In this document: piece after piece, positions 20,538-45,028 of the stretch
Numbering within the stretch: position 1 is the first letter of the stretch
How the letters are laid out: the number at the start of each line of letters is the position of its first letter
Assembly (NCBI GenBank): GCA_944358445.1
Contig: CALVRC010000003.1
Coordinates: 43,991-107,990 of the forward strand
Direction of reading: 5' to 3'
Origin: an uncultured Bacilli bacterium
Lineage (GTDB): Bacteria > Bacillota_I > Bacilli_A > RF39 > UBA660
Length of the DNA stretch: 64,000 nucleotides
Notes under the pieces: generated by a model
Database searches by the model: none
What the model was told of the DNA's origin: nothing
Seen by the model: only the letters and a program-made list of their open reading frames with translations
Position numbers and translations under genes: made by a program

Positions 20538-20630
20538 TTAATGTCTAGATATATTTAAGATAATACCCATGGAAGCTAGAGTTATTAATAAACTAGACCC
20601 TCCATAAGATAAAAACGGTAAAGTGACACC
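20538..20630 (-). pseudogene. ftsW: 3' end of ftsW, cut off by the mobile element
   Basis: On the minus strand from base 20630 this encodes GVTLPFLSYGGSS, then LLITLASMGIILNISRH and a TAA at 20538-20540. GVTLPFLSYGGSS is the conserved C-terminal signature of SEDS proteins (FtsW/RodA), just before the last membrane helix. It has no start codon and belongs to the ftsW gene whose front is at 43048-44029 on the same strand. Joining the two at the shared GG gives I-P-V-T-G-V-T-L-P-F-L-S-Y-G-G-S-S without a gap or extra residue. Confidence 0.95.
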
Positions 20631-20655
20631 GCATATATTGTAATTACCGCTTATT
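20606..20655. other. Attachment junction (ftsW 3' side of the element)
   Basis: Chromosome/element border. On the minus strand the element arm ends ...ATATATGC, then the core GG at 20629-20630, then ftsW TGTCACTTTA. The element arm (reading outward GCATATATTGTAATTACC) is an imperfect inverted copy of the arm at the other end (GTATGTCCTGCTAGG): G.AT.T..TG..A is shared, the symmetry expected of a serine recombinase attP. Confidence 0.85.
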
Positions 20656-20733
20656 TTTGGGTGGATACACTTACAATATAACTGAAAAACTAACTTAACA
20701 CTTCCATATAACTGATTTTTTTAGATAAAAATA

Positions 20734-22311
20734 TTATCCCTCTACTAATAATTCAGGGAACTTTAAATGTACATATATTTTCTTATCTTTATCTATTTCT
20801 ATTTTATCAACTAACCTCATAAGTTGTTCCTTAGTAGGATTTTTTAATGACATATAATCTAAAGCACTTTTTTTACATTTTGAAAAACTCGAATTATTAT
20901 CTTGTTTGCTTTCATTTATTCCTTTTTGTCTTTCTAACTCACTAATTTCTAATTCTAACTTTTTTATTTCTTTCATTGTTTTTTCATAAATTCTTTTATA
21001 CATCTCTTCATCTACTAAGCCATGAACTTTATCTAAGTATAAACTGTCTATAGTATTTTTATGAGTGTTAAGTACATTTTGTTTTCTTTCTATCTTCGTT
21101 TTAATTTCAACTATATTCTTAATAATGATATCTTCTGAATTATCTTCTACTTCACTGAAATTATAATATCTGCAAAAATTCTCACAAACATCTTGTAAAT
21201 ATTCAATAATATCTTCTTCTAGCCAATCATAGTTAACTCTATGTGATGAGCAAATTCCAAAATTACCTTTTCTTGTATATAAATTACATTGGGTATAATG
21301 TCTAATACCTTTTTTTAATACATCTTTACTTATCCTAATACTTCTTCCGCAATCCTTACAATAAAGTAATCCTCCAAGTAAATATTGTAATTGTTCATCA
21401 GTTTTCCTATCAGTAGTTCTACTACTTAAAATTTCTTGAACCTTATCAAAAGTTTCTTTATCGATAATAGCTTCATGAGTGTTTTTTACTATAATATGTT
21501 CTGAATTATCTGTTTTACGAATCTTTTTTGAATTATAACTTATCTTGTTATGAGTATTTTGAACCATATTACCAATGTACATTTGATTTGTTAGAATTCC
21601 AGCAACAGTTTGTCTTCGCCAAATTCCATAACCATCATTTTCTGTTACAAGTTTTGCTCTGGGTTCTTGTTTATGTACTATTGGAATTGCTATCTTTCTC
21701 ATAGTTAATAAATCTGCTATTTTTTTAGGACTATAACCTTCTAAAGCCAGCTCATAAATATATTCTACATTTTCTCTTACTTCCTCATCAACTATTAATT
21801 TATGTCTGTCGTTTGGATCTTTTTTATAACCATATAAAGGAAATGAACCAATATAATCACCACGATTTTGCTTAGCTCTTAAACTAGTCTTTACTTTTTT
21901 AGAAACATCTCTTAAATATAAATCATTAACACTCAATCTTATACCTAACATGGCATCTCCAATATTAGAATCATAAGAATCATTAATAGCTATATATCGT
22001 ACACCTTTTTCTAAAAAATATTCTTCAATATATTTTCCAGTTTTATAAAGTTCACGACCTAATCTTGATAAATCTTTTGTTATAACGCAATTAATTTTTC
22101 CTTTTTCTATATCTTCAATCATTGCTTTAAAACCAGGTCTATCAAAATTACCACCAGAATATCCATCATCAACATAATGCTTTACAATTTTTAAATTATT
22201 AAATTTTGCAAATGAATCAATTATAATTTTTTGACTTTGAATAGAAGAACTTTCATCATTTTTATTATCGGCATCTGATAGTCTATCATAGCCGGCACAT
22301 AAGTATTGCAT
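20734..22311 (-). CDS. Large serine recombinase (element integrase)
   Basis: A 525-residue large serine recombinase. The catalytic domain has YDRLS at residues 8-12 (catalytic Ser12, Arg10) and KDLSRLGR at 79-86. It continues with a long helix, the recombinase domain (GYSPKKIADLLTMRKIAIPI, TVAGILTNQMYIGN), a zinc ribbon (YCKDCG with later CN and CSS cysteines), a coiled coil at about 400-470, and a C-terminal strand region IDKDKKIYVHLKFPE. Such enzymes integrate and excise DNA between short att sites through a 2-base core, which fits the GG at both junctions. GTGGAGG precedes the ATG, which overlaps the stop of a 37-codon gene. Confidence 0.96.
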   Translation of the reverse strand: MQYLCAGYDRLSDADNKNDESSSIQSQKIIIDSFAKFNNLKIVKHYVDDGYSGGNFDRPGFKAMIEDIEKGKINCVITKDLSRLGRELYKTGKYIEEYFLEKGVRYIAINDSYDSNIGDAMLGIRLSVNDLYLRDVSKKVKTSLRAKQNRGDYIGSFPLYGYKKDPNDRHKLIVDEEVRENVEYIYELALEGYSPKKIADLLTMRKIAIPIVHKQEPRAKLVTENDGYGIWRRQTVAGILTNQMYIGNMVQNTHNKISYNSKKIRKTDNSEHIIVKNTHEAIIDKETFDKVQEILSSRTTDRKTDEQLQYLLGGLLYCKDCGRSIRISKDVLKKGIRHYTQCNLYTRKGNFGICSSHRVNYDWLEEDIIEYLQDVCENFCRYYNFSEVEDNSEDIIIKNIVEIKTKIERKQNVLNTHKNTIDSLYLDKVHGLVDEEMYKRIYEKTMKEIKKLELEISELERQKGINESKQDNNSSFSKCKKSALDYMSLKNPTKEQLMRLVDKIEIDKDKKIYVHLKFPELLVEG

Positions 22312-22424
22312 TAATATATTACCTCCACTTCTTTTTTTAGCAATACCAGTACCTCACATTGCCATGCTACCATCAAAACTTCAAAAAAGCAAGTCATCTT
22401 GTCTTTAAATTTCTTAAATAACAT
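22311..22424 (-). CDS. 37-residue small protein coupled to the recombinase
   Basis: An ATG at 22424 is preceded by a very strong ribosome site (AAAGGAGGGATATTT). The frame gives MLFKKFKDKMTCFFEVLMVA and ends EVEVIY with TAA overlapping the recombinase ATG (TAATG), so translation is coupled. The sequence is basic then hydrophobic. No family is recognised; its place next to the integrase makes it a candidate accessory or directionality factor (inference only). Confidence 0.5.
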   Translation of the reverse strand: MLFKKFKDKMTCFFEVLMVAWQCEVLVLLKKEVEVIY

Positions 22425-22528
22425 AAATATCCCTCCTTTAGAATTTCTTCTAACTTAGTTCCATCTTTTTTATAAATAAATTTAATATCTAATTTTCTTC
22501 TTTTTCCATCTTTATCTAATCGTTTCAT
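22394..22528 (-). CDS. 44-residue small basic protein upstream of the recombinase
   Basis: The ATG at 22528 follows GAGAGGGGGACTCT, a good ribosome site. The product starts MKRLDKDGKRRKLDIKFIYK and ends YLRNLKTR; it is charged and has no membrane helix. It overlaps the next small gene. Function unknown. It is probably a real gene, because two ribosome sites, two overlapping frames and the recombinase form one compact unit. Confidence 0.45.
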   Translation of the reverse strand: MKRLDKDGKRRKLDIKFIYKKDGTKLEEILKEGYLCYLRNLKTR

Positions 22529-22582
22529 AGAGTCCCCCTCTCTATAAAAACTATTCTTAAAGAAAAAGAATAATGAATACGA

Positions 22583-24412
22583 TTAATAGACATTATTCTT
22601 TTTTCCTTTCTCTAAAGTTAATTCATTCTCTAATGGATTCTTCAAATGAATTTCAATAACCGAATTTCCGTTGTTACCATTATCAATATTTATATGATAA
22701 ATTTCTTTATTAACTTTGCCTTTTACAAATGTTAATTCTTTATTAGATAATGGTTTATCAATTTCAAAACTAGCATAAGTTCTAGTATTTCTTTCTTTAT
22801 ATTCAAATAAACGAATTTTACCTTTTAGTAGTTCATTTATAATATCTACTACTTTTTCTAATTTTTTTATTTCTTCTTGTCTAAAGTCTTCATATTCAGG
22901 CAATTCTTCATGTTCTTTTGATTTATCAACTCTATTTCTATATTCTCTATCAAATTTTGTTTTAATATTTTCTACAGTAAAATAAGTATTACTTAAATCT
23001 AATAAAGGGTAAATTTTTCTCTTCACTTCACCACTTGAATAACAAGACAATTTTTTATAAATAACAGTATCTCTAAAAATCGGATAACCTATATTAGGGA
23101 ATATTATCGTTTTATAATGCAAATTTTTAACTTCGTCCGGTGTTAATAAATCTCTTGCTATTAAAGATGTTGACTTATTACCATTATAATTTGTTAAGCT
23201 TACAGATTGACTAATAGAAGAAGACTCTATTGTCTTTTTACCTAACCTTTTTGATATAGCCTCCGCTGTATCCATTGTGTTAGTTTTTAAATAAGCAAGT
23301 CCTGAGTTATCTAAAATAATTTGTGCTACTTCTTTACCATAGACATTATCTAATTGTGATAAACTTTGAATAAACAAATGATATCTTAATCCTCTAGATC
23401 TTGCCACAGATATAATTGACTCAATACTAGGTTCTACTAAAGGTGGACAATTACTAAATTCATCACAAATCCAATCAATTTCGATTGGTACTCTCTTATT
23501 AACTTGATTATTAGCCAATTTAACAAGCTCTTTATATAATAAACCTAATATAATTGTAACTAAGGTATAATAAATTTTATCTTCGTCTGGAACTATTACA
23601 AATAATGCTGATTTTTCTTTTCCTAAAATATCAAAATCAAAATCTGATTTACTAGTTACATTTGCAACATTAACATCATCAAAAATAGCCATCTTCTCAC
23701 TAAACACACTTGTAATAGATTTATAAGTATTCTCACTTGATGATAAAATAGGAATCAAACTATCTTTAGATTTACAACCATAAGGTTTTTGTTCAATATA
23801 TGATTTAAATTTTCTTGAATTTTTTTCTTCCATAGTAGAATTTTGAAACTTACGAATAGAAGTCATTGTTATTTGTTCTCTTTTAATTTTTTCGTCTTTA
23901 TATTCTTCTAAGAAAAATCCTATTAAACCCTCTAATAAGTTTTTAGCTGAGTTATTCCAAAACGGATCTTTTCCTTGTACTTTTTCATAAGTTATCATAC
24001 TGGCAAGTGAAGTAATTAATCTATTTGTTTCTGCATAGTTAGATATTGATTTATTTTGTAGTTCTAATTTTTCTTTTTTATCAGATGTTTCTAGTGCTTG
24101 CTTATTATATTTAATATAGTTTTCATATTCACATATAATAGGCTCTAAAATATTAATATGATTAGATAATTCAGGATGTCTAAAATCGATTGTATAAATT
24201 TTATAACCATTATCATATAGCATTTTAGAAGTAGCATGAAATATTTCCCCTTTTGGATCTGTTACAAAAACACTTCTTTTTACTTTAGCTGTTGCTATGA
24301 AACTAATCATTGGAATAACTGCAGTAACACTTTTACCAGAACCACTTGAACCTAAATATACATAATGTGGCGTTTCTTTATCGAACCACACATGCTTTAT
24401 TTTTTTTATCAT
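22583..24412 (-). CDS. VirD4/TraG-type conjugal coupling protein, main part
   Basis: A 609-residue ATPase with Walker A LGSSGSGKSVTAV (about 20-32), VFVTDPKGEIF, a Walker B WICDEFSNCPPL, and SIISVARSRGLRYHLFIQSLSQL, all hallmarks of VirD4/TraG coupling proteins that feed DNA to a type IV secretion channel. Its beginning, KHVWFDKETPHYVYLGSS, normally continues from an N-terminal membrane part. That part is encoded immediately upstream in another frame (24378-24617); the two overlap by 35 bases around an A8 tract. The present ATG lacks a good ribosome site. It is either made by slippage or is a broken gene. The C-terminal 120 residues are charged and coiled. Confidence 0.85.
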   Translation of the reverse strand: MIKKIKHVWFDKETPHYVYLGSSGSGKSVTAVIPMISFIATAKVKRSVFVTDPKGEIFHATSKMLYDNGYKIYTIDFRHPELSNHINILEPIICEYENYIKYNKQALETSDKKEKLELQNKSISNYAETNRLITSLASMITYEKVQGKDPFWNNSAKNLLEGLIGFFLEEYKDEKIKREQITMTSIRKFQNSTMEEKNSRKFKSYIEQKPYGCKSKDSLIPILSSSENTYKSITSVFSEKMAIFDDVNVANVTSKSDFDFDILGKEKSALFVIVPDEDKIYYTLVTIILGLLYKELVKLANNQVNKRVPIEIDWICDEFSNCPPLVEPSIESIISVARSRGLRYHLFIQSLSQLDNVYGKEVAQIILDNSGLAYLKTNTMDTAEAISKRLGKKTIESSSISQSVSLTNYNGNKSTSLIARDLLTPDEVKNLHYKTIIFPNIGYPIFRDTVIYKKLSCYSSGEVKRKIYPLLDLSNTYFTVENIKTKFDREYRNRVDKSKEHEELPEYEDFRQEEIKKLEKVVDIINELLKGKIRLFEYKERNTRTYASFEIDKPLSNKELTFVKGKVNKEIYHINIDNGNNGNSVIEIHLKNPLENELTLEKGKKNNVY

Positions 24413-24617
24413 AATAAATAGGAAATCCTACTTCATTTATGTTACTTATAATTTCTTTTGAAAAATTTTTATTAATCTCACTTAAAGTAGAAAATCTAGC
24501 TGATCCATATTCATTATTATTTTTTACTTTATGTTTTGCAATAATTGGCTCAATATATATAAAACCTATTAAGAAAACAATTAAAAATACTAATAGTAAA
24601 ATAAGGGATATACTCAT
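24378..24617 (-). CDS. N-terminal part of the split VirD4/TraG protein
   Basis: A 79-codon frame starts with a membrane helix (SLILLLVFLIVFLIGFIYI), then NNEYGSARFSTLSEI, the N-terminal signature of VirD4/TraG proteins, and ends GFPIYYDKKNKACVVR. Deleting one A from the A8 tract at 24400-24407 makes YYDKK run into IKHVWFDKETPHYVYLGSS of the downstream frame, giving an uninterrupted coupling protein of about 675 residues. A ribosome site (GGGGATATATT) precedes its ATG. Confidence 0.8.
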   Translation of the reverse strand: MSISLILLLVFLIVFLIGFIYIEPIIAKHKVKNNNEYGSARFSTLSEINKNFSKEIISNINEVGFPIYYDKKNKACVVR

Positions 24618-24641
24618 AATATATCCCCTATCAATCTTTTA

Positions 24642-24842
24642 CTATAAATCATAATTCTCCTTACTAAAAATAAGATTATTTTTGTCTTTTATGTTATATT
24701 CTTTTAAAACATATATTCTTTTATGATAAATTAACAATTCAGTTACCTTATCATCATTAAATATCCTATATCTACTTCCCCAAAACTTTTTATGATTCCA
24801 AGTTAAGAAAGAAAGTATTTTTTTAAATTTCATATTCTTCAT
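24642..24842 (-). CDS. Hypothetical 66-residue protein
   Basis: A short basic protein (MKNMKFKKILSFLTWNHKK). There is no recognised domain. It overlaps the end of the previous gene by 20 bases, is in the same run of tightly spaced genes as the coupling protein, and ends 24 bases before it. Small-protein status is supported mainly by this packing. Confidence 0.45.
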   Translation of the reverse strand: MKNMKFKKILSFLTWNHKKFWGSRYRIFNDDKVTELLIYHKRIYVLKEYNIKDKNNLIFSKENYDL

Positions 24843-25041
24843 CGTATATTCTATCCTTATCTACAATTATATTAGCTAAAGTTTCTTTATCTAATTTTGA
24901 TAAATCCAAGCAAATTTCTTTATTGCCATAGTATTGTCTTATTACAAGAATTGTATCTTTTTTAAAATTAAATTCTTTTGAAGAAAAAAGTATTTCTTGT
25001 AAATCTTCATATTTTTCGTCTAAATTAATTTTATCATTCAT
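24823..25041 (-). CDS. Hypothetical 72-residue protein
   Basis: A short acidic protein beginning MNDKINLDEKYEDLQEILFS and ending DRIYDEEYEI. The start at 25041 is preferred because AAAGGG lies 9 bases upstream; ATGs at 25047 and 25050 are too close to it. It overlaps the end of the DNA methylase gene by 8 bases. No family is recognised. Confidence 0.5.
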   Translation of the reverse strand: MNDKINLDEKYEDLQEILFSSKEFNFKKDTILVIRQYYGNKEICLDLSKLDKETLANIIVDKDRIYDEEYEI

Positions 25042-25774
25042 CAACATCATCCCTTTCTTTTAATGTATCACTAATTCTCTTTTTAGCTATTTCATAATAT
25101 TTTTTATTTATTTCATATCCAATATAATTTCTATTTTCTAAAACAGATGCTACTGCTGTAGTACCACTACCTAAAAAACAATCTAAAACTAAATCATTTT
25201 CTTTACTACTATTTCTAATTATTTTTCTAATTAATTCAACTGGTTTAATAGTAGGATGTCCATATAATTTTTTATCTTTAATATTAATAGTGGAATAATA
25301 TACCGTTTTAGCATCTTCATAATTTTTTGGCTGACAATAACCATTTTTTCTAAAATATAAACAATATTCTTTATCACTCATATATTTACAACTGTATAAA
25401 GGCATTGGATTAGTTTTATTCCATATTAATATTTCTAATTTACAATCCAGTTTTTCTATAAAATATTTAATATATATTGGTATTTGTCTTCCATTACACC
25501 ATATATAAATATTTATTCTTTTCATAACTCTTACTAATTCATCTAAAACAGAATAATTAAATGCATTAACCAAGTCATTTTTGATTAATTCATCTTCTAA
25601 ATTTTTCATGTGTTTAGCAATTCTTGTTTTCCCTTTACATCCACCTTTAGTACATATATCGTAAGGTGGATCAATAATAACAAGATCTATTGTTTTATCA
25701 GGTATATCTTTTAAACCGATTAGGCAATCTTGATTATATATTTGATTTACCTGCAATATATTTTTTCCTTTCAT
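25034..25774 (-). CDS. Solitary DNA adenine/cytosine-N4 methyltransferase
   Basis: A 246-residue N6/N4 DNA methylase. The catalytic motif IV IIDPPYD (33-39) precedes the SAM motif I DCFLGSGTT (about 200), the beta-class order, with GHPTIKP between them. No cognate endonuclease is adjacent, so it may modify element DNA for regulation or protection from host restriction. The ATG at 25774 has no ribosome site; a TTG 18 bases downstream has AAAGGA 7 bases before it and could be the true start. It overlaps the XRE gene by 41 bases. Confidence 0.9.
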   Translation of the reverse strand: MKGKNILQVNQIYNQDCLIGLKDIPDKTIDLVIIDPPYDICTKGGCKGKTRIAKHMKNLEDELIKNDLVNAFNYSVLDELVRVMKRINIYIWCNGRQIPIYIKYFIEKLDCKLEILIWNKTNPMPLYSCKYMSDKEYCLYFRKNGYCQPKNYEDAKTVYYSTINIKDKKLYGHPTIKPVELIRKIIRNSSKENDLVLDCFLGSGTTAVASVLENRNYIGYEINKKYYEIAKKRISDTLKERDDVDE

Positions 25775-26000
25775 TTAAAAAGATGGGATGAATTTCCCAT
25801 CTTATTCTTGTTAAATAATCATAATCTATATTTAATATTTTACATAACCTATATATAAAAACACTATTAACTTTTTTTAGTTTATCATTTTCAATATTAT
25901 ATAGTGTTGAAACTGAAATATTAGATAACTTTGATAATTTATCTAATGAAACATTATTTTTTATCCTTTGTTCTTTTATTATATATCCAATATTATTCAA
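25734..26000 (-). CDS. XRE-family HTH regulator
   Basis: An 88-residue protein with an XRE helix-turn-helix: IGYIIKEQRIKNNVSLDKLS, then KLSNISVSTLYNIEND, then SVFIYRLCKILNIDYDYL. The last 25 residues (RWEIHPIFLNERKKY) are encoded across a strong terminator-like hairpin (25781-25806) and overlap the methylase start. A GGAGGTAAG-type site precedes the ATG. Confidence 0.8.
   Translation of the reverse strand: MNNIGYIIKEQRIKNNVSLDKLSKLSNISVSTLYNIENDKLKKVNSVFIYRLCKILNIDYDYLTRIRWEIHPIFLNERKKYIAGKSNI
25781..25806 (-). terminator. Terminator-like hairpin within the XRE gene, before the methylase
   Basis: A 9-bp perfect stem AAGATGGGA/TCCCATCTT with a 6-base loop, followed by a U-rich stretch on the minus strand. 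It lies inside the XRE frame and a few bases upstream of the methylase ATG. Confidence 0.6.
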
Positions 26001-26016
26001 TATTCTTACCTCCTTC

Positions 26017-26259
26017 TTATGTTAATTTATTTAAAATAAAACTTTTATATCCTTCTTCACTTAATAACGAAAATATACTTATTTGTAAAGCATCACATAT
26101 TTTTAACATCAAATAAAAACTAGGATTTTTGTTAATCCCAGTTTCAATTTCTTCTACTTCATCAAATTCTAAATTAGTAAGTTTTCCTAATCTTCTTCTA
26201 GACATTCCCCATGCTTTTCTTTCCATTTTTATGATTTTACCTAAATCATCTACATACAT
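26017..26259 (-). CDS. XRE-family HTH regulator
   Basis: An 80-residue helix-turn-helix protein: LGKIIKMERKAWGMSRRRLGKLTNLEFDEVEEIETG, then a helix YLMLKICDALQISIFSLL. Start at 26259 because AGAGGTG lies 8 bases upstream; the GTG at 26268 lies within that site. Its ribosome site overlaps the stop of the 45-codon membrane protein gene, so the two are coupled. Confidence 0.75.
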   Translation of the reverse strand: MYVDDLGKIIKMERKAWGMSRRRLGKLTNLEFDEVEEIETGINKNPSFYLMLKICDALQISIFSLLSEEGYKSFILNKLT

Positions 26260-26264
26260 TTCTT

Positions 26265-26402
26265 TCACCTCTTCTTTATTATTTTTTTAAAATTTTCTCT
26301 TTCTTCTTCCCTTGAACATCTGCTTGATATAACACAAACAGAATATAAAAAAAGTACTAGTACAATAACTAGCACCATAAATATAAATATCAAACCACTC
26401 AT
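26265..26402 (-). CDS. 45-residue single-helix membrane protein
   Basis: The ATG at 26402 has an excellent ribosome site (AAGGAGAGAAA). The product is one membrane helix (IFIFMVLVIVLVLFLYSVCV) and a charged tail (SREEERENFKKIIKKR). It precedes and overlaps the ribosome site of the XRE gene. Function is unknown; small membrane proteins of this kind occur in conjugative elements. Confidence 0.6.
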   Translation of the reverse strand: MSGLIFIFMVLVIVLVLFLYSVCVISSRCSREEERENFKKIIKKR

Positions 26403-26446
26403 TTTCTCTCCTTATATTTAAAAATTAATATTGAAAATTTTAGTAA

Positions 26447-26475
26447 TTAAAAAAGCAAACACAAAGTCCGCTTTC
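26447..26475 (-). terminator. Probable terminator after the coiled-coil membrane protein gene
   Basis: Stem AAAGC/GCTTT with inner AC/GT pairs, then T6 on the minus strand. The stem is imperfect. Confidence 0.55.
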
Positions 26476-26528
26476 TAATTATTATATTTATTTTTTTTGA
26501 ATTGACTCTATGATTTTAATCAGGTCAT

Positions 26529-27683: not shown

Positions 27684-27705
27684 ATTTACCTCCTCAAATA
27701 ATATA

Positions 27706-27733
27706 GGTAGTGTGCAATGTTTTTCACACTACC
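27706..27733. promoter_or_regulatory. Palindromic operator between divergent genes
   Basis: A perfect 9-bp inverted repeat GGTAGTGTG/CACACTACC with a 10-base spacer, centred between starts at 27683 (-) and 27757 (+). It is placed to let the XRE protein control both genes (inference). Confidence 0.65.
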
Positions 27734-27756
27734 AAATTATTTATGAGGTGTACTTT

Positions 27757-28217: not shown

Positions 28218-28218
28218 A

Positions 28219-32474: not shown

Positions 32475-32480
32475 AAATAC

Positions 32481-35261: not shown

Positions 35262-38200
35262 TATACCACCACCATAAATGTAATTAGTTCAAAATCTTCT
35301 AATCCTTTAATGTCATTCTTTAACATTGTAGTGCCACCAGTTCTAAATAAACTATCAATATCATTTTCTTCTTTTATATTTATTATCGAATTAATACTTT
35401 GACTTAATAGTTCAGAATATAAATTCATATCTTTACCATCATTAGTAAAATCATTAAATATATTATAAGCATCTTTTATTGGTTCACTATTTCCTTTAGA
35501 AACAATTCTTAATAAATCTAATGTGTTTTTAACATTTAAATGATTAGATAATATTTCGCCATCCTCTTTTATATAAATCAAATAGAAAGGATGTAATTGG
35601 TTCATACTATCTATATTTACTTCATTATTTATATTTTTTAATACATAAATAACTCCTTTTTCAATACCTAATGATTGATTTTCATGAACAACAGAATGTA
35701 GTCCAAATGGTATTCCATCTAACTCACCATTGTTTTTGACATACTCAACTAAATCCATTCTAAATTCATTAAGTCCTAAATCAGTAATAGAAATACCCGT
35801 ATTCATTTCTTCTAAATCCACTACTTCTTCTTGAAGTTTTTGCAATTGAATTTTTCTATAATCCATATCACTTGATTTGTTAGTTAAGACATTATCCTCA
35901 CCTGTACCAGATATATCTAACATTAGCATTCTATTTTCTACTCTATTTTTTAAATTAATATAATCATCTAAAGATAAATTTGGCCAAAAATTAACTAATT
36001 GAATTACTTCATTAGATGAACCAATTCTATCTACACGCCCAAATCTTTGTATGATTCTTACTGGATTCCAATGTATGTCATAATTAATTAAATAATCACA
36101 ATCTTGTAAATTTTGTCCTTCTGATATACAATCTGTAGCAATTAAAATATCTATGTCATCAGTTGAATTTGGATCTAACATATCACGATGCTTCGATTTT
36201 GGAGAAAAATTCAATAATAAATTGTTAAATTCCTTATTCATTTCAATCGTACATTCGTTAGTTCCTGAACCTGTTATTTTACAAGTTTGTAATCCATAAT
36301 GATTTTTTAAATTCCCAGATATATTTTTATAAATATAATCAGCTGTATCAGCAAATGCACTAAATATAATTACTTTTTTATTTCCACTATTTATTGGATT
36401 ATTTACTTTATTAATAATTAAATTAAATAAATCTATTAATTTTGAATCATGTTCTGGAGTAACTTTATCCATTTCACATAATAATTGTTTTAATATAACA
36501 TAGTCAGATAATAAATCTTGTCTCCAGCCAATTGTATTCATATCTTCAAGATTAATTTTAACTTTTTTACCAATACTAAATTGATCATTTAATAAATCAT
36601 CAACATCTTCATCTGAATTATAATTAGTTACTTCTACATCTTCGAAACTTTTATTAATCCCTCTATTTTCAAACTCCTCAATTGATTTTAATATTGTCTC
36701 AATTTGATATAAAACTTTATTTAAAGTTAATCTAAATGATTCTACTGAAGACTCTAATCTTTTTAAAAAATTAATTCTCATTAATATTTGTAAACTTCTT
36801 TCACGATCTGCTTGCCTAAAACTTGATTGTCCACCCTTAACTGAAATATCATACATTTCCTCATACTTCGATAATGACGCTGGTAAAATATAATCAAATG
36901 GTGCATACACACACATATTAAGTTTAGACAAAGTTTCAGCAATTTCTTTAATTGACATAAAGCCTTCAATATTTGTCAATTCTGAACTAATACTAATTGG
37001 TTTTAATCTAGTAGGAAATTTACCAATACTACTCATATTATAGTATTTTTCTATATGTTTTCTACTTCTAGCTATAGTCACACTATCTAACAATTTAAAG
37101 AAATCAAAATTTGTATTTAATCTGTTTAATAATTCTTGACTTGTCCTTTGCTCTGGTTCTAGTTTACTCCATTCATTAAAGATTGTTTGAGCATTTTTCA
37201 AGATTGTATCTATTGATTTTGTATTACTTATTTTATCATCAATTTTTCCAGTGTTTCCTTCATAAGCTAAAGCTAATTGATTTTTTAAATCTAAGAATTT
37301 ATTATTTACTGGAGTTGCAGATAGCATTAAAACTTTGGTTTTAACGCCTGCCTTCATTACTTGATTCATTAATTTATCATATCTTGTTTCTCTATCATTT
37401 CTAGCACTATTGTTTCTAAAATTATGGGATTCATCAATAACAACTAAATCATAGTTACCCCAATTAACTCTTGATAAGTCCATTCCATTAGAATCGCCAT
37501 GTGTTCTTGATAAATCTGTATGAAATAATACATCATAATTAAACCTATCTTCTTGTAATGGATTATCTTTATAGTTCTTTATATATGTATTCCAATTTTC
37601 AGATAATTTTTTTGGACATAATACTAATATACTTTTATTTCTTTCTTGATAATATTTAATAACAGCTAATGCTGTATATGTTTTTCCTAAACCAACGCTA
37701 TCAGCTAATATACAACCATTATGCCTTTCTAACTTATTTATTATTCCTAATACAGCATCTTTTTGAAATTCATATAATGAGTTCCATATTTTAGATTCTT
37801 TAAATCCAGTTTTCTCATTAGCCAATTCATCTTCAGAAATATCTTCCAAAAACTCTGTAAATATATTATACAAAGTAACATAATAAACAAACTCAGGCGA
37901 ATTTTCTTTATATAAATCAGACATAAATTCAATTACTTCATCTGTAACATCTTTTAATTGTTTCTCATCATTCCATATTTGTTCGAATGATGTAATATAA
38001 TTTTTCGTTATTTCGTATTCAATATCAAGTTTTGTAACTGGCATAAAAATAGAATTATCTTTTTCATATCCAAAACCTACTGAAGAAAACTCTTCCACAT
38101 TTATATATCCAATTGCATTATTAGAATTTTCAATTGTCATAAACTTTTGAATTGCATTACCATTCACATTCGTTTTAAATTTGGCTTTTTCTTTAATCCA

Positions 38201-38521
38201 ATTAGCACATTCCTTAGCAATAGATTTACCATTTAATTCATTTTTTAACTTAACTTCAAAAGATGAACCACTAATACTTTTTTCTCTATTTCTAGTATTT
38301 ATCTCAAATAGTTTTTGTTCTTTAGAATTCTTTGATATTTCTATAAATGTCGGATCAGAAAATATAAATTTAAATTCTGAAATTTGCGACAATTCTTTTT
38401 TTAAAGCTTTATATCCGTACATCGAAAAAATTGATGCACAAACTTGTAGTTTAGATTTAAATTTTATTGAATCTTTTAAATCATCACCAAGTTTTTCAAA
38501 TTTATTATCTATTACCTTCAT
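35261..38521 (-). CDS. SNF2-like SF2 helicase of the defence operon
   Basis: A 1086-residue helicase. Motif I ILADSVGLGKTYTAL (about 272-286), motif Ia LVLCPKKLSENW, motif II VIDESHNFRN (about 361-370), motif III LMLSATPVNN, C-terminal VIIFSAFADTADYI, IATDCISEGQNLQDCDYLINYD, and motif VI IIQRFGRVDRIGS (about 825). This is the HepA/SNF2 pattern also seen in defence helicases such as DrmD of DISARM; the DISARM genes drmA, drmB and drmC are absent here. The N-terminal 200 residues show no known domain. It is the first gene of a six-gene operon that runs to 28219. Confidence 0.92.
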   Translation of the reverse strand: MKVIDNKFEKLGDDLKDSIKFKSKLQVCASIFSMYGYKALKKELSQISEFKFIFSDPTFIEISKNSKEQKLFEINTRNREKSISGSSFEVKLKNELNGKSIAKECANWIKEKAKFKTNVNGNAIQKFMTIENSNNAIGYINVEEFSSVGFGYEKDNSIFMPVTKLDIEYEITKNYITSFEQIWNDEKQLKDVTDEVIEFMSDLYKENSPEFVYYVTLYNIFTEFLEDISEDELANEKTGFKESKIWNSLYEFQKDAVLGIINKLERHNGCILADSVGLGKTYTALAVIKYYQERNKSILVLCPKKLSENWNTYIKNYKDNPLQEDRFNYDVLFHTDLSRTHGDSNGMDLSRVNWGNYDLVVIDESHNFRNNSARNDRETRYDKLMNQVMKAGVKTKVLMLSATPVNNKFLDLKNQLALAYEGNTGKIDDKISNTKSIDTILKNAQTIFNEWSKLEPEQRTSQELLNRLNTNFDFFKLLDSVTIARSRKHIEKYYNMSSIGKFPTRLKPISISSELTNIEGFMSIKEIAETLSKLNMCVYAPFDYILPASLSKYEEMYDISVKGGQSSFRQADRERSLQILMRINFLKRLESSVESFRLTLNKVLYQIETILKSIEEFENRGINKSFEDVEVTNYNSDEDVDDLLNDQFSIGKKVKINLEDMNTIGWRQDLLSDYVILKQLLCEMDKVTPEHDSKLIDLFNLIINKVNNPINSGNKKVIIFSAFADTADYIYKNISGNLKNHYGLQTCKITGSGTNECTIEMNKEFNNLLLNFSPKSKHRDMLDPNSTDDIDILIATDCISEGQNLQDCDYLINYDIHWNPVRIIQRFGRVDRIGSSNEVIQLVNFWPNLSLDDYINLKNRVENRMLMLDISGTGEDNVLTNKSSDMDYRKIQLQKLQEEVVDLEEMNTGISITDLGLNEFRMDLVEYVKNNGELDGIPFGLHSVVHENQSLGIEKGVIYVLKNINNEVNIDSMNQLHPFYLIYIKEDGEILSNHLNVKNTLDLLRIVSKGNSEPIKDAYNIFNDFTNDGKDMNLYSELLSQSINSIINIKEENDIDSLFRTGGTTMLKNDIKGLEDFELITFMVVV

Positions 38522-38558
38522 ATTACCACCCGTTTAATCGATATAAAAATCTATAACT

Positions 38559-38567
38559 ATTATATCA
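38559..38567 (-). promoter_or_regulatory. Extended -10 promoter of the defence operon
   Basis: TG-A-TATAAT on the minus strand, about 30 bases before the ribosome site GGGTGG of the helicase gene. No good -35 is seen, which fits an extended -10 promoter. Confidence 0.6.
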
Positions 38568-38629
38568 TGAAATTCACATTATTTCTTTATTGATTTCAAA
38601 TTTCCTTATGAAAATTCGGTAATATTATT

Positions 38630-39028
38630 TTAATAACTTATACTAATAATATCTGAAAAAAATATTTTTAATTTATTCGTAAATATTATACATTTTTCAA
38701 CTTCGTCAATTCTTTTAACATTCCCTGATATAGTTTTATAAACTCCTCCACTTTTTTTATTATCATGTACAAAATAAGTAATAACTACTTCAGGCTGTAA
38801 CTTTATATTTTCGATAATCAATTTTATCTTTTGATTTAACATATTTTTTAACTCATCACTTAGTTCAATTTTTTGTTCTGTTAATCTTGCTGTTTCTTTT
38901 ATTGCATCATTGTATCCTGTTAAAGCAGCAAAAGGAGCAAATTGAGCAACTCTATTATATAAACTCATAGGGTTTCTAGTCTTAGAAACATGATGTGGTA
39001 AATTTATTATATCTTTATACTTATTCAT
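38630..39028 (-). CDS. YolD-like protein, partner of the Y-family polymerase
   Basis: A 132-residue protein with the YolD-like signature [28 protein letters not shown] and an ensuing helix ([15 protein letters not shown]); the C-terminal half is a beta-rich domain ([27 protein letters not shown]). YolD-like proteins are typically encoded next to UvrX-type Y-family polymerases in Firmicutes prophages and ICEs. It overlaps the polymerase gene by 8 bases, so it is part of the same SOS unit. Confidence 0.85.
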
Positions 39029-40523
39029 GATGTCCTCCTATTTGATGATTTCTTTCTATAGCTGTTGCACCTTCTATGATATTCATTCCTTTTAAAATAG
39101 CATTTTTGCCATATTTATTTTTAATTTGTAACATAACTTTCTGTATTTCTTTTTTGTTTTTCTCATTCAATTTTTGCTGTGCTTTCTTTTTTTCTTGTTC
39201 TTCATAATTAGTAAACAAATCAATTTGTTCCACTACTTTTTTATTTTGAACCTTGTCCTCACTAATTAATTTATTAACTGATAAATTTAATTTTCTAATA
39301 AGTAATATTGGATTAGAAATTTTATCAAACAAATTTACAAACCCTTCCATAATAGCAGTTGAAGAAGATGTTAACTGATTTAAATTAATTGTTCCATGAG
39401 AATGTTTAGGAATCTTTCTACCATACGAATCAATAGTTATTTCTCCAAAATATTTATCAAAAATGTCTGGATTAGTTAAATTTTCTATATCATAATCTAT
39501 TGTCATTACTAATTGTTCTGTAAGAAGTCTTTTATTTACTAAATCTAATGCTAGGTTATCAGCCATTTCTCTTACAATTAATCTAGCTTTTTTATTATCA
39601 TAAGGACAATGTAAAACTTGACCAGAACTTAGAGAAGTTGTTGTTGGTTTATAACTTTTTGCAATATCAATAGTACAAGGTTCGTATCCCCAAGCATGAT
39701 CAATTAATAACTCTGCATTTATTCCAAATAACTTATATAATAAATCTTCATTATAATGCGAGCATCTAGCAACATCACCCATCGTAAACATATTATTTTT
39801 AGCAAGCTTATCAGCTATACCTTTTCCTACTCTCCAAAAATCAGTGATGGGCTTATGATCCCATAATTTTTTTCTAAAAGTCATTTCATCCAACCCTGCA
39901 ATTCTAACTCCAAATTCATTTGCTTTACTTTTTTTAGCTACTATATCCATAGCAACTTTTGCCAAGAACATATTTGTACCTATTCCAGCAGTTGCAGTAA
40001 TTCCTGTTGTGTCATAAACATCTTTAATTATTTTAGTAACTAATTGTCTAGGTGTACATCTATAAAGAGAAATATAATTTGTAATATCTATAAACACTTC
40101 ATCAATTGAATATACTAGAATATCTTCAGGTGCAATATATTTTAAATAAATATTGTATATATTAGTACTGTATTTCATATAATAAGCCATTCTAGGTGGA
40201 GCTATAATTAAATCTAATTCTAGACCTCTATTATTCTTTAGTTCATCATCAAGATATGACTTTCCAATAAATTTTTTATAATTATTCAATTTCTTTCTTT
40301 GATAATTTACCTCTTTTATTTTTTGTTTAACTTCAAATAATCTTGCCCTTCCACCAATGCCATATTGTTTTAAAGATGGGCTAACAGCTAAACAAACTGT
40401 TTTATCTGTTCTTGATTCATCGGCAACAACCAAATTAGTATTTAATGGTTCTAGTTTTCTTTCAACGCATTCAACAGAAGCATAGAAACTTTTTAAATCA
40501 ATACACATATAAATTCTTTCCAT
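39021..40523 (-). CDS. Y-family DNA polymerase (UmuC/UvrX type), SOS-controlled
   Basis: A 501-residue translesion polymerase. Catalytic acids are in [15 protein letters not shown] and in [10 protein letters not shown], and the fingers/palm text [21 protein letters not shown] and [19 protein letters not shown] is typical of UvrX proteins of mobile elements. The little-finger domain ends near 400; the tail is coiled and basic. The ATG at 40523 is chosen: it follows GGTGATGGGT and lies downstream of the promoter, whereas the longer frame from 40589 would start upstream of the -10. A LexA box overlaps the promoter, so damage should induce it. Confidence 0.93.
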
Positions 40524-40539
40524 ACCCATCACCATAATT

Positions 40540-40561
40540 ATTATACTGCGAACATTTGTTC
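40540..40561 (-). promoter_or_regulatory. LexA (DinR) box and -10 of the Y-family polymerase operon
   Basis: The palindrome GAAC-ATTT-GTTC at 40550-40561 matches the Gram-positive SOS box GAACN4GTTC and ends 4 bases above a perfect -10 TATAAT (40540-40545). It would block RNA polymerase until LexA is cleaved after DNA damage. Confidence 0.88.
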
Positions 40562-40620
40562 TTTGAAATGAATTCTTTTCAATTACCATTAATTTACATA
40601 ATCTTTTCTAATTTTCGTAC

Positions 40621-40650
40621 AAAAAAACAGCAAATCTAAAGTTTACTGTT
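40621..40650 (-). terminator. Terminator of the 422-codon hypothetical gene
   Basis: A 9-bp stem AACAGTAAA/TTTGCTGTT (one G.T pair) with a 6-base loop, then T7 on the minus strand. Confidence 0.8.
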
Positions 40651-40660
40651 ATAGTCGTTT

Positions 40661-41926
40661 TTATCTATAAGTATCTGTATTAGGAATGATCATATTAATT
40701 AATCCTTTATTTTCTAATTCATGAAAATAAGTTGCAATTTGAGATAATATATATAATTCATTATCTGTATATTCATTTAGACAATCTTCAGATATATCAA
40801 TATATCTACTAAATACTGATATAAGTTCTTTATAGCATATAAATGCATAATGTTTATTTCCGGGATAATTATCTTTTAAATACAAAATCTTACTTTGATA
40901 ATATGAATGACTACTTCCATCTTGATTTTTTACATATATTTTTCCCAATAATAAATTAGAAAGTAAATTGTCAGATAGAGAATTTCCTTTAAAATCCATA
41001 TTTTGTAATTGTCTTTGAATTGTTTTCATTGCATATTTAAGTGAATTACAATATTTATTGTACTTTATTTTATTATTATCTCCTATGTTAAAACAATTTA
41101 ATATAGATTTTACTTCTTTGATATCATCTTCTAAGTTTGGGCATCTTTTGTTGCTTTCATCAATCAAATTATCCAAATAATCATTATATGAATCAAATTC
41201 TTCACTTTTTCTTATCTTTGTGTTTCTCAATATAGAGATATTTCTTTCATTGTATTTTTTTACTTTTTTGGATAGATAATTTAATGAATAATATTTAAAT
41301 TTAACAAAATTAAAAACTTCATTAATATATATTGATTTATTAGTTAAAAAATGTTCAGAACCATTATTATAAGTAACTAATACTATTTCTCCATCACATC
41401 TAGGATCTATAGTATATATTCCACCTGTCCATACAACATAAGGGCTTACTTCTAAATCTGCTAATTGAAATTCTTTATGCCTGTTAGTTTTACTTGGATG
41501 AACAGAACTTAGTGCTCTTATGTATTCAAAATAGTCTTTATCATCGATTTTTAATTTTTTTGAATTTTTATTAGCTTTTTCAATATAAGTATCATTGAAA
41601 GTTTTATGTTTAAATATTTTATTGCTTTTCGGAGGTTCAAATCCATATATTTTGTATGCTTCGTCTATACATTCAATTAATACTGCTGCTTGTTCCATAA
41701 ATTCAAAAAAATCAAATGCACATCTTTTCCATTTGCCATTATTTAATTCTTTTTCATTTAGATAAATAACTAAATCATCTATTCTGTCCATTATTGCACA
41801 TATACTATTCCATGCATTTTCTTTTTCATTATCATGATATGTTTTATTTATAGAAAAATCTAAATATTCATTAACAATATCTCTAAAGTTAATACTTACA
41901 TTCTTGTTTAAAATAATTTTATACAA
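40661..41926 (-). CDS. Hypothetical helical protein of the element
   Basis: A 421-residue protein that I do not recognise. A TTG at 41926 is preferred as the start because GGGGAGG lies 7 bases before it; an ATG at 41965 has no ribosome site. The first 140 residues are helical; a stretch YIRALSSVHPSKTNRH contains R-x5-H, loosely like the HEPN RNase motif, but this is weak. VSPYVVWTGGIYTIDPRCDGEIVLVTY suggests a beta-domain in the middle; the C-terminus is helical. An inverted repeat ACAATTTT/AAAATTGT lies upstream near 42050. It follows the methyltransferase-like gene and ends at its own terminator. Confidence 0.6.
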   Translation of the reverse strand: MYKIILNKNVSINFRDIVNEYLDFSINKTYHDNEKENAWNSICAIMDRIDDLVIYLNEKELNNGKWKRCAFDFFEFMEQAAVLIECIDEAYKIYGFEPPKSNKIFKHKTFNDTYIEKANKNSKKLKIDDKDYFEYIRALSSVHPSKTNRHKEFQLADLEVSPYVVWTGGIYTIDPRCDGEIVLVTYNNGSEHFLTNKSIYINEVFNFVKFKYYSLNYLSKKVKKYNERNISILRNTKIRKSEEFDSYNDYLDNLIDESNKRCPNLEDDIKEVKSILNCFNIGDNNKIKYNKYCNSLKYAMKTIQRQLQNMDFKGNSLSDNLLSNLLLGKIYVKNQDGSSHSYYQSKILYLKDNYPGNKHYAFICYKELISVFSRYIDISEDCLNEYTDNELYILSQIATYFHELENKGLINMIIPNTDTYR

Positions 41927-42115
41927 ATTATAACCTCCCCTATAATAAAACTGATAAACAGCCATTTGTTTTACATAATATGTTAGTAATTTTTTAACTT
42001 AACTCACTACTCATCACTTATCATTAACATTAAATATAATATCACAATTTTTCTAAAATTGTTATTATATCAATCTTAAATTTATTGAAAACTTATATAA
42101 AATAAAAAAGAATTA

Positions 42116-42820
42116 TCAATTAGATGATAATCCAATTATTTCATAATAATATTTATGAACAAGTCTTCTATTTATTTTTCGAGCAAATACATGTCCAACT
42201 CTGTGTGTATGATTTTTCTTATGATATGGATGTCCTTCGTGGTAAGTTAAATCATTATGTTCTATTAAGGTAATAACTTCCCAAAATCTAGGATCAAAAT
42301 ATCTTTTCATTTCACCACTTCTAAAATATTGATTAACTGAAAAGTTGCTAATATCTTTTTCATTTTTAGCCATATGATAAAAAATATAAATATATCCATT
42401 CTCTTTTACAGACGATAATAATTTTCTCATCTTTCTATTCATTGGTACATTCTTATTATGTTTTTCATGCAAAGAGCGATAACAATATACAAAATTGTAT
42501 TTATCTTCTACTCTTTCTTCATAAAAGTTTTTATTTCTTATCTCTATGTTATTTTTATATTCTTTATAATATTTTCTATTAATTATAGGAGAAATTATAT
42601 CATCAGCTATAACCCCACCTTTTATATAAACTTCATTTGGCTCATACATTACAACATTTGCTCCGTGATTAGCAAAAGGAATCGAATGAAGTCCATCTTT
42701 ATCATCTACTACTAAAACTTTAAATTCACCATTATACTCTTTATTTAACAATTTCATGTATTCATAACTTGTTCTTTGGGCATTACCAAAAACACTTCCA
42801 ACATCTATTTTTCTTTTCAT
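42116..42820 (-). CDS. Class I SAM-dependent methyltransferase-like protein
   Basis: A 234-residue protein. EFKVLVVDDKDGLHSIPFANHGANVVMYEPN resembles the first half of a Rossmann methyltransferase (motif I and the acidic end of strand 2), then YNFVYCYRSLHEKH and ENGYIYIFYHM for later strands. Glycine-rich motif I is degenerate, so activity and substrate are uncertain. The C-terminus is rich in His (HPYHKKNHTHRVGH). Start at 42820 since TTGGAGGAAGAA precedes it; the TTG at 42832 lies inside that site. It is the gene nearest the ftsW 5' junction. Confidence 0.6.
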   Translation of the reverse strand: MKRKIDVGSVFGNAQRTSYEYMKLLNKEYNGEFKVLVVDDKDGLHSIPFANHGANVVMYEPNEVYIKGGVIADDIISPIINRKYYKEYKNNIEIRNKNFYEERVEDKYNFVYCYRSLHEKHNKNVPMNRKMRKLLSSVKENGYIYIFYHMAKNEKDISNFSVNQYFRSGEMKRYFDPRFWEVITLIEHNDLTYHEGHPYHKKNHTHRVGHVFARKINRRLVHKYYYEIIGLSSN

Positions 42821-43021
42821 TTCTTCCTCCAAAAATATGTGAGGTATCTTTGGTATTGCTCATAGAAACTTTTTCGCAGTAATGGCAAAACAACCCCCAT
42901 TTTTATCTGCATTTTTTTTGATTTTTTCATAGTTTTATTCATTTTTATCATTTTTTTAAGAAATCAATTAGAACAGTAATGTAAGAATTCCTTTGAAAAT
43001 AAAGGAAAAACTTCTTCGTCG

Positions 43022-43073
43022 TAATCAGTTACCTAGCAGGACATACCCAGTTACTGGTATTAAGCCAATTACG
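43022..43073. other. Attachment junction (ftsW 5' side of the element)
   Basis: On the minus strand ftsW reads CCAGTAACT, then the core GG at 43047-43048, then the element arm GTATGTCCTGCTAGG. The break codon is the Gly of P-V-T-G in FtsW. Only GG is shared with the other junction, as expected for a serine recombinase crossover. Confidence 0.88.
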
Positions 43074-44029
43074 ACACTTAAATTTAATACAGCTTGAAAT
43101 CCTAGCATGAATATTATTCCAAAAGCTAGATATTTTCCAAATAAGTTTTCACAGTTTAAAGCAATCTTTATAGCTTCATAAATGATGAAGGCAAATAAAC
43201 CAGAGACAATTAACACACCCATAAAACCAAATTCTTCACTAATTATTGAAAAAATGAAATCTGTTTGAGGTTCTGGAAGATAAAAGTGTTTTTGCCTTGA
43301 ACCACCAAATCCATAGCCAAATAATCCACCTGGTCCTATAGCATATAATGATTGAATAATTTGAAATCCACTACCTAAAGGATCACTCCAAGGATTTAAA
43401 AATGATAAAATTCTTTTCAATCTATAAGGTGCGGCTAAAATTAAACCAACAATACCAGCTACACCTAAAACACCTATTTTTAAGAAAAATTTTAAATCTA
43501 CTCCACCAACAAAAAGTAGACCAATTACTCCCATAACTAAAATTACACCTGTTCCAAAATCTGGTTGCAGCATGATTAGTAAAAATACAATTAAGGTTAA
43601 GCCAAGTATTGGCATAACTCCTTTTTTTATGTTTCCAATATCTTTTCTATTATTATAAAGATATTTACTTGTGAAAATTATCATGGCTAATTTCATAAAT
43701 TCACTAGGCTGAATACCAAAAGAACCAACACCAAACCAACTTTTACTACCATTTCTTTCAGTTCCAACGAATAAGACTAATATGATTAAAGCAAAACAAA
43801 CAAGAAATATTTTACTTGCATATTTATAATATTTTTTATAATCTATTTTACTTACAATATACATGATTATTATTCCAACTATTAAAAATATTCCTTGATT
43901 TTTGACATATTTAAAGGGATCTGAAAATTTATATTCAGCCCAAATACTAGATGATGAATAGACCATTAGAAGTCCAAATAAAGATAAAATGATAACACTT
44001 ATAAATAGAGAAATATTGAATTTTTTCAT
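43025..44029 (-). CDS. ftsW: FtsW, truncated by the element (5' part with a foreign tail)
   Basis: The SEDS glycosyltransferase that polymerises septal peptidoglycan. The frame from 44029 gives 334 codons: about nine membrane segments, GVGSFGIQPSEFMKLAMI, LLIMLQPDFGTGVILV, and FLNPWSDPLGSGFQIIQSLYAIGPGG, all FtsW marks. It breaks at SVVIGLIPVTG; the native VTLPFLSYGGSS and last helix are replaced by the element-encoded YVLLGN and a stop at 43025. Intact FtsW would be about 358 residues. The start is at 44029, where ATGA overlaps the mraY stop and GGGGTG precedes it. Whether this form works is unknown; precise excision would restore it. Confidence 0.93.
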   Translation of the reverse strand: MKKFNISLFISVIILSLFGLLMVYSSSSIWAEYKFSDPFKYVKNQGIFLIVGIIIMYIVSKIDYKKYYKYASKIFLVCFALIILVLFVGTERNGSKSWFGVGSFGIQPSEFMKLAMIIFTSKYLYNNRKDIGNIKKGVMPILGLTLIVFLLIMLQPDFGTGVILVMGVIGLLFVGGVDLKFFLKIGVLGVAGIVGLILAAPYRLKRILSFLNPWSDPLGSGFQIIQSLYAIGPGGLFGYGFGGSRQKHFYLPEPQTDFIFSIISEEFGFMGVLIVSGLFAFIIYEAIKIALNCENLFGKYLAFGIIFMLGFQAVLNLSVVIGLIPVTGYVLLGN

Positions 44030-45018: not shown

Positions 45019-45028
45019 TTAATCACCT

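What the first reader, a model, noticed from the sequence alone, without database searches (positions are those of the whole stretch)
20538..44029. A 22.4 kb serine-recombinase element splits the cell-division gene ftsW
The ftsW frame from 44029 stops being FtsW-like after P-V-T-G (43047) and the missing signature V-T-L-P-F-L-S-Y-G-G-S-S plus the last helix is found at 20538-20630, same strand. The two junctions share only GG, and joining them rebuilds FtsW of about 358 residues without a gap. A large serine recombinase lies 0.1 kb inside one end, and the two element arms are imperfect inverted copies, as in attP. I know of elements in comK, sigK and similar genes that excise to restore function; ftsW is normally essential, so either a second FtsW/RodA covers for it, the truncated protein works, or excision is controlled or happens in part of the population.
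Basis: partly seen in the sequence, partly recalled or inferred. Interest (0 to 1): 0.93.

Follow-up and report, generated by a model that had tools for sequence, protein, structure and literature searches.

The report
Mobile element splitting sporulation gene spoVE
In an uncultured bacterium related to gut bacteria, a 22.4-kb mobile element that carries its own integrase cuts in two a gene that likely builds the spore wall (spoVE, rather than the division gene ftsW), at the codon where related elements cut it in other species, and it is predicted to pop out during sporulation and restore the gene.

Summary
A 22,418-bp element (20629-43046) splits a SEDS gene after I-P-V-T-G; the halves share only GG and join into an open 357-aa frame. 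A near relative has the empty site, its flanks meeting at exactly those two bases.
The gene is most likely spoVE, not ftsW. Separate ftsW-like and rodA-like genes exist. Outside the host family a close homologue occurs in 10 of 10 SpoIVA-positive and 0 of 29 SpoIVA-negative genomes; only 11 of the 29 have any SEDS gene.
The cut recurs at this codon in nine other genomes with both halves found; the tree needs at least six changes. The four nearest of 15 other class-level integrases (47-51%) abut the spoVE 3' end; more distant relatives abut spoIVA and cwlD-like 3' parts. Element ends identical over 60 nt in three diverged hosts show recent transfer.
Excision in the mother cell, as for skin, is inferred: there are no reads, no sigma-E/K promoter was found, and one relative is inverted.

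The parts
43047..44029 (-). 5' part of the spoVE-like SEDS gene (residues 1-327 and the GG of codon 328)
   Evidence: the joined protein is 99-100% identical to the intact ones of G027 and G064
20538..20630 (-). 3' part of the gene (GVTLPFLSYGGSS..NISRH and stop), beginning at the GG core
   Evidence: one search finds it as a separate PF01098 fragment
20629..43046 (-). inserted element, 22,418 bp, GC 24.3% against 27.6 and 28.9% in the flanks
   Evidence: empty site
43047..43048 (.). GG crossover core at the 5' junction
20629..20630 (.). GG crossover core at the 3' junction
20734..22311 (-). large serine recombinase (integrase), 525 aa
   Evidence: dN/dS 0.124 against the G070 and G071 integrases, dS above 1
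22394..22528 (-). 44-aa small ORF just upstream of the integrase; candidate recombination directionality factor (inferred)
   Evidence: small ORFs of this kind at the same place in G070, G071, G238, G058, G082 and the spoIVA element of G015, none recognised in G172; no Pfam match for three of them
22583..24412 (-). VirD4-like conjugative coupling protein, CD1115 family
   Evidence: 292 bits, cut-off 250
25034..25774 (-). type II-like DNA methyltransferase
28219..31275 (-). type III restriction enzyme
   Evidence: 976 bits
31272..32474 (-). Shedu SduA
   Evidence: 360 bits
32481..34355 (-). type III methyltransferase
   Evidence: 687 bits
35261..38521 (-). SNF2-type defence helicase
   Evidence: C3a139, 430 bits
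38630..40589 (-). YolD-like protein (weak match, below its cut-off) and Y-family DNA polymerase
42116..42832 (-). left-end ORF; relatives (34-36% identity) beside the 5' junction in G172, G082 and G238, that is in 3 of 8 loci searched
44026..46945 (-). mraY and spoVD-type PBP upstream of the split gene
   Evidence: SpoVD 745.6 bits, cut-off 688

Best explanation
A 22.4-kb mobile element with a large serine integrase gene sits at a conserved codon of what is most likely spoVE, the spore-cortex SEDS polymerase gene, and is predicted to excise in the sporulating mother cell and thereby restore the gene. SHOWN: the precise insertion with a 2-bp GG core and an empty allele in relatives; both halves in frame; recurrence at the same codon in many hosts with related integrases; transfer of one element between diverged hosts; intact ftsW-like and rodA-like paralogues and sporulation genes in the genome. 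INFERRED: the integrase made the insertion, using V-T-G-V-T (GTNACN-GG-NGTNAC) as attB; the gene is not needed in vegetative growth, so the insertion is tolerated; the 44-aa ORF upstream of the integrase turns the reaction to excision; excision happens in the mother cell, which dies anyway, so the spore inherits the element. Until excision the cell lacks the LPFLSYGGSS loop and last helix and would not make cortex. The element itself looks like a non-phage, perhaps mobilizable defence island (coupling protein, type III restriction-modification with Shedu).
For: Junctions and open 357-aa join. Empty site meeting at GG in G027 and L036. Gene identity: spoVE is the best model (437.7 bits, just under its 448.8 cut-off; ftsW 404.9); the paralogues on C21 and C2 match ftsW and rodA best, both below those cut-offs; the Neobacillus homologue found (L091) is SpoVE (596.5) between murD and murG. 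Close homologue in 10 of 10 SpoIVA-positive and 0 of 29 SpoIVA-negative genomes outside the family; counting only the 11 negatives that have some SEDS gene, 0 of 11. Own genome has spo0A, spoIVA and spoIIID. Recurrence: both halves found in G067-G071, G058, G238, G172 and G082; at least 6 changes for 7 split among 56 genes. The 4 nearest of 15 other genomes with an integrase at E<=1e-100, of 395 sampled, abut the spoVE 3' end. Related integrases abut the 3' parts of spoIVA and of a CwlD-like gene (147 bits over positions 30-189 of 189; full-length cut-off 221.6). Integrase and small ORF persist in a 2,967-bp element that otherwise holds one CYTH ORF.
Against: No read, RNA or circle evidence; the exact 20-base attP pattern has 0 hits in viral contigs. 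No strict sigma-E or sigma-K consensus within 300 nt upstream of 5 integrases or 250 nt upstream of spoVD; over the whole element, coding strand only, the sigma-K pattern matched twice, both inside ORFs, sigma-E never. In G058 the halves lie 48 kb apart in opposite orientation, so excision could not restore that gene. G082's spoVE also carries a second serine-recombinase element in its middle, which could mean a dead gene. Constraint does not decide: the window's and L088's nearest-pair dN/dS are low (0.021, 0.047; intact median 0.067), but the other five split genes give 0.16-0.20, which only 3 of 46 intact genes reach; matched for distance the difference nearly vanishes (57 split-intact pairs, median 0.166; 198 intact pairs, median 0.150; L083 highest at 0.228). 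Six of the 10 SpoIVA-positive class genomes have no other SEDS match than this gene, so it might also serve division there. SpoIIID not found in 3 of 13 genomes (G172, G058, G069). The patchy, horizontal distribution also fits a parasite that makes its host asporogenous.
Confidence: 0.6

Rival explanations
1. A plain integrative element that uses a growth-dispensable sporulation gene as a safe attB. Carriers are sporulation-defective and the element persists by horizontal transfer; no developmental excision.
For: Patchy distribution with at least 6 changes, identical element ends in three diverged hosts, no sigma-E/K motif upstream of the integrases, second insertion in G082, inverted halves in G058, dN/dS of five split genes above the intact median.
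Against: Halves stay in frame; distance-matched dN/dS hardly differs from intact genes; integrase and small ORF kept even in a 3.0-kb element; spoIVA and a CwlD-like gene are hit likewise; the elements described in the passages seen excise.
Confidence: 0.31
2. The gene is the vegetative division ftsW, and a truncated protein or partial excision keeps the cell alive.
For: The joined protein also passes the ftsW cut-off (404.9 against 337.5); a source names a relative FtsW (P0083); six SpoIVA-positive class genomes have only this SEDS gene.
Against: The spoVE model scores higher; separate ftsW-like and rodA-like genes; no close homologue in any of 11 SpoIVA-negative class genomes that do have SEDS genes; the SpoIVA-negative family member G079 keeps only a C21-like SEDS gene.
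Confidence: 0.08
3. Assembly chimera.
For: The genome is a 40-contig draft.
Against: Exact empty site; the same junction with a related integrase on one contig in G070 and G071 and both halves in the single-contig genome G058.
Confidence: 0.01

Closest known systems
skin element in sigK (B. subtilis, C. difficile)
   Same: recombinase-bearing element inside a sporulation gene, gene rebuilt by excision (start of the abstract of PMC5025042 seen; passages of PMC4191935)
   Different: other target gene; skin is prophage-like; here excision is not shown
gin in gerE, Bacillus cereus ATCC10987 (PMC5595907; passages seen)
   Same: non-phage element, serine recombinase plus an additional factor (GirC, GirX), sporulation gene
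   Different: gin has three recombinases and a 9-bp overlap; ours has one and 2 bp, a coupling protein and a defence island
SPbeta in spsM, vfbin in spoVFB, vrin in spoVR (PMC4191935; passages seen)
   Same: element interrupts a mother-cell sporulation gene
   Different: prophage or prophage-like; other targets
yin in yabG, C. botulinum (PMC10747680; passages seen)
   Same: interrupts a sporulation gene
   Different: prophage-like and unique to one isolate; ours recurs in many species
Mobilizable serine-integrase elements with a CD1115-type VirD4 coupling protein
   Same: integrase and coupling protein
   Different: no relaxase found among the 20 ORFs scanned

Membership tests
sporulation gene-intervening elements (skin, SPbeta, gin, yin type) | inserted in the frame of a sporulation gene, halves in frame | tested here: met
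   that the gene is spoVE is a strong inference
sporulation gene-intervening elements (skin, SPbeta, gin, yin type) | element-encoded site-specific recombinase, precise att site, empty allele in relatives | tested here: met
sporulation gene-intervening elements (skin, SPbeta, gin, yin type) | excision and circularisation | not testable with these tools
   no reads; exact attP pattern not in viral contigs
sporulation gene-intervening elements (skin, SPbeta, gin, yin type) | mother-cell timing through sigma-E/K control and a directionality factor | tested here: inconclusive
   no promoter consensus upstream of the integrase; a recurring small ORF is a candidate factor
large serine recombinases | Resolvase + Recombinase + zinc-ribbon domains, 2-bp crossover core | tested here: met
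   recombination activity not tested
temperate phage | structural or lysis genes | tested here: not met
   10 element proteins against PHROGs: only the integrase and one family of unknown function; the rest by Pfam only
integrative conjugative element | relaxase and secretion channel | tested here: not met
   20 element ORFs against Pfam: coupling protein only
FtsW | best match to FtsW among SEDS models, and present regardless of sporulation | tested here: not met
   passes the ftsW cut-off but spoVE is higher; no close homologue in 29 of 29 SpoIVA-negative class genomes, 11 of which have SEDS genes
SpoVE | passes the spoVE model cut-off and tracks sporulation | tested here: inconclusive
   437.7 bits against 448.8; tracks SpoIVA 10 of 10 against 0 of 29 outside the family, less cleanly within the family

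The most novel reading that the evidence does not exclude
Gut Bacilli harbour a whole guild of non-phage serine-integrase elements specialised on spore-building genes: one clade on spoVE (always the V-T-G-V-T codons), another on spoIVA (T-P-W|Y), another on a cwlD-like gene. Each makes cortex or coat assembly depend on its own excision, so mobile defence islands hold the keys to sporulation; in one host spoVE would need two excisions.
Probability: 0.35. Interest if true: 0.86.

Novelty: new variant of a known kind. Interest (0 to 1): 0.72.

Why it matters
If excision is confirmed, the synthesis of the spore cortex itself, not only sigK or a coat gene, is under the control of a mobile element, and the same target has been hit repeatedly across families by related integrases. 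It would show that non-phage defence islands can live at little growth cost by parking in sporulation genes, would explain apparently broken sporulation genes in metagenome-assembled gut Bacilli (which may be passed over as FtsW fragments), and offers an integrase group with a defined, codon-imposed attB.

Tried and rejected
Essential ftsW: disfavoured on model scores, paralogues and co-occurrence. Chimera: rejected. Prophage: no phage genes beyond the integrase among 10 proteins. attP inverted arms: weak, 7 of 20. Sigma-E/K promoters: none at the strict consensus, which was recalled and not taken from a call. Free circle: exact attP pattern 0 hits in viral contigs; integrase relatives there are at most 42% identical over a long stretch (two short matches of 44-47%). 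dN/dS to decide whether split genes are dead: inconclusive, since most pairs are saturated and the window pair is too young; that script also picks open frames only. Rfam on 4 kb of G082 around the start of its second insertion: nothing. Literature: spoVE with intervening and excision gave 1 paper, on the mother-cell transcription programme; the listings (10 of 39 shown; 1; 15 of 181 shown, all with 0 occurrences of spoVE; 2) show no report of these targets; the library lacks most subscription papers. A likeness of the small ORF to TnpW came from memory only and was not matched by Pfam.
Full report
OBSERVATION. On the minus strand the SEDS gene from 44029 is open to I-P-V-T-G, then reads YVLLGN and stops. 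The missing signature and last helix are at 20628-20538. Cut at the shared GG, the flanks give a 357-aa frame without stop; the element between is 22,418 bp and 24.3% GC against 27.6 and 28.9% in the flanks. L195, a contig of genome G027, aligns to window 43047-45667 (98.4%) and to 20530-20630 (98.0%), the two alignments overlapping by just the 2-bp core; L036 shows the same. The insertion is therefore real and exact.

WHICH GENE. The joined protein scores 437.7 bits with the spoVE model (cut-off 448.8), 404.9 with ftsW (cut-off 337.5) and 328.5 with rodA (cut-off 336.7), so model scores alone do not settle it. Three further results favour spoVE. The upstream neighbour passes the SpoVD cut-off, with mraY between. 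The genome holds two other intact SEDS genes, best matched by ftsW (264.5) and rodA (256.2), both below those cut-offs. Across the 39 sampled class genomes outside the host family, a close homologue (E below 1e-100) is present in 10 of 10 with SpoIVA above cut-off and in 0 of 29 without (best there 4.9e-51). A family search shows the limits of that contrast: 18 of the 29 have no SEDS match at all, leaving 0 of 11 as the fair comparison, and six of the 10 positives (G037, G039, G042, G049, G053, G096) have this gene as their only SEDS match, where it might serve division too. Within the family the SpoIVA-negative G079 (93% complete) keeps one SEDS gene only, like that on C21, but three other SpoIVA-negative drafts (G011, G017, G059) have the gene whole or in part, and some SpoIVA-positive drafts lack it (for example G066 and G080, both 93% complete). 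The own genome also has spo0A, spoIVA and spoIIID.

RECURRENCE. Of the 44 genus genomes, 33 have the gene in full, the window's is split, G017 has only the last 30 residues at the very start of a contig, G005 and G059 have partial genes at contig ends, and 7 have none. Elsewhere the gene is cut at the same codon with both halves found in G070 (14,632-bp element) and G071 (2,967 bp) on one contig each, in G067, G068 and G069 on separate contigs that end near the junction, and in G238, G172 and G082 on separate contigs; L079 shows an N-half followed by a different arm. In G058, a single-contig 2.5-Mb genome, the halves lie 48 kb apart in opposite orientation, mraY and murD before the N-half and murG and murB after the C-half; both halves there carry V-T-G-V-T-L, so the crossover cannot be placed to the base. 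Among the best 120 of 8000 protein homologues, P0014 and P0092 also stop at the site (P0001 is the window's own; P0092 may be a contig end). A maximum-likelihood tree of 56 N-halves, 7 of them split, needs 6 changes of state, and supported branches alone force 6; gains and losses are not told apart.

INTEGRASES. The 525-aa recombinase has 65 homologues at 60-84% identity before a drop to 57% and lower (best 120 listed). In 395 class genomes, evenly drawn and with three candidates scored in each, 16 (own included) have a match at E<=1e-100. Of 53 loci brought in by integrase searches (L005-L034, L200-L222), the spoVE 3' fragment was found in 5 (the own and the four next-nearest at 47-51%: G238, G058, G172, G082) and spoIVA in 1 (G015). 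By eye, others lie beside LysM genes (5 loci), an amidase with LysM and a carboxypeptidase-like frame; in G031 the neighbour matches positions 30-189 of the CwlD model (147 bits, below the full-length cut-off; its 5' part was not located). Many showed no recognisable split gene, and part of the output was cut (13 loci were reprinted). The integrases of the window, G070 and G071 are 76-79% identical, more than the host N-halves (68%), with dN/dS of 0.12-0.16 at dS above 1. The first 60 nt of the element are identical in L078, L083 and L086, whose N-halves are only 60-67% identical: recent horizontal transfer.

spoIVA. In G015 one contig holds SpoIVA residues 1-123 and, 44 kb on, the rest, with an integrase 38-40% identical to ours directly before it. 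Halves cut at the same T-P-W|Y codons lie on separate contigs in G024, G076 and G067, and an N-half in G001, which also has a whole spoIVA gene. In G076 both contigs end exactly at the crossover, and in G017 the spoVE C-half contig starts exactly at it. An assembly graph can break this way when occupied and empty alleles, or different elements, coexist in the sample; this is suggestive only.

THE ELEMENT. From the integrase inward: a 44-aa ORF with small ORFs of this kind upstream of the integrase in G070, G071, G238, G058, G082 and the spoIVA element (elsewhere the pattern is looser or absent, none recognised in G172), a VirD4-like coupling protein, a DNA methyltransferase, HTH regulators, a type III restriction-modification system with Shedu SduA between its subunits, a SNF2-type defence helicase, a YolD-like ORF (weak) and Y-family polymerase, and a left-end ORF with relatives beside the 5' junction in G172, G082 and G238 but not in the five other loci searched. 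No phage structural gene (10 proteins) and no relaxase (20 proteins) was recognised. The 3.0-kb element of G071 holds a CYTH ORF, the small ORF and the integrase.

CONSTRAINT. Nearest-pair dN/dS is low for the window (0.021) and L088 (0.047) against an intact median of 0.067, but 0.16-0.20 for the other five split genes, a level reached by 3 of 46 intact genes. At matched distance (dN 0.18-0.24) split-intact pairs have a median of 0.166 (57 pairs) and intact pairs 0.150 (198 pairs); L083 is the highest at 0.228. The data neither show decay nor exclude it.

MECHANISM. The integrase most likely recognises the near-palindrome that V-T-G-V-T codons impose around GG. SpoVE is expected to be needed only in the mother cell (general knowledge of B. 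subtilis), so insertion would cost little in growth. Known elements of this type (sigK, spsM, spoVFB, spoVR, gerE, yabG) are described as excised during sporulation, and the mother cell's genome is discarded, so the same is proposed here. Against it stand the missing sigma-E/K motif, the inverted G058 locus, and the double insertion in G082, where a second serine recombinase (36% identical to ours) splits the gene near residue 235 as well. I put developmental excision at about 0.6.

NOVELTY. In the papers searched within, spoVE and spoIVA have 0 occurrences in PMC4191935 and PMC10747680, and spoVE 0 in PMC5595907 (passages seen, not the whole texts), and the listings show no such report. It is a new variant of a known kind: new target, non-phage carrier, repeated use across families.

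Noticed in passing
L293 (G082:C14:15500-21500): spoVE is split a second time near residue 235 (G-P-G-G-L) by a roughly 3.6-kb element with its own serine recombinase; the gene lies in three pieces.
   Followed up: partly
L181 (G024:C62:1-7000), L183 (G010:C22): In G024 an intact spoVE is followed by a roughly 0.9-kb cassette with an ORF6N gene and a second copy of the 3' end of spoVE: a non-disrupting insertion type; G010 looks alike across two contigs.
   Followed up: partly
L190/L188 (G058:C1:861850-910033): The spoVE halves lie in opposite orientation at the ends of a 48-kb segment whose inversion would rejoin them.
   Followed up: partly
G037, G039, G042, G049, G053, G096: Six SpoIVA-positive class genomes have the spoVE-type gene as their only SEDS match, while 18 SpoIVA-negative ones have none; possibly lineages with little or no vegetative wall.
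   Followed up: no
window 43047-45667: mraY and the 5' part of spoVE are 98.4% identical to G027 while other aligned blocks away from the gene are 83-90%: a recombination mosaic.
   Followed up: no
window 19864-20529: This stretch (ORF 19861-20487) right after spoVE has no counterpart in the aligned G027 contig.
   Followed up: no
L276 (G031:C42): A serine recombinase lies directly before the 3' part of a CwlD-like gene, possibly another split spore gene.
   Followed up: partly
L056, L057 (JAGBES010000032 and 000006): Two contigs of one draft genome carry spoVE-type genes with identical N-halves.
   Followed up: no
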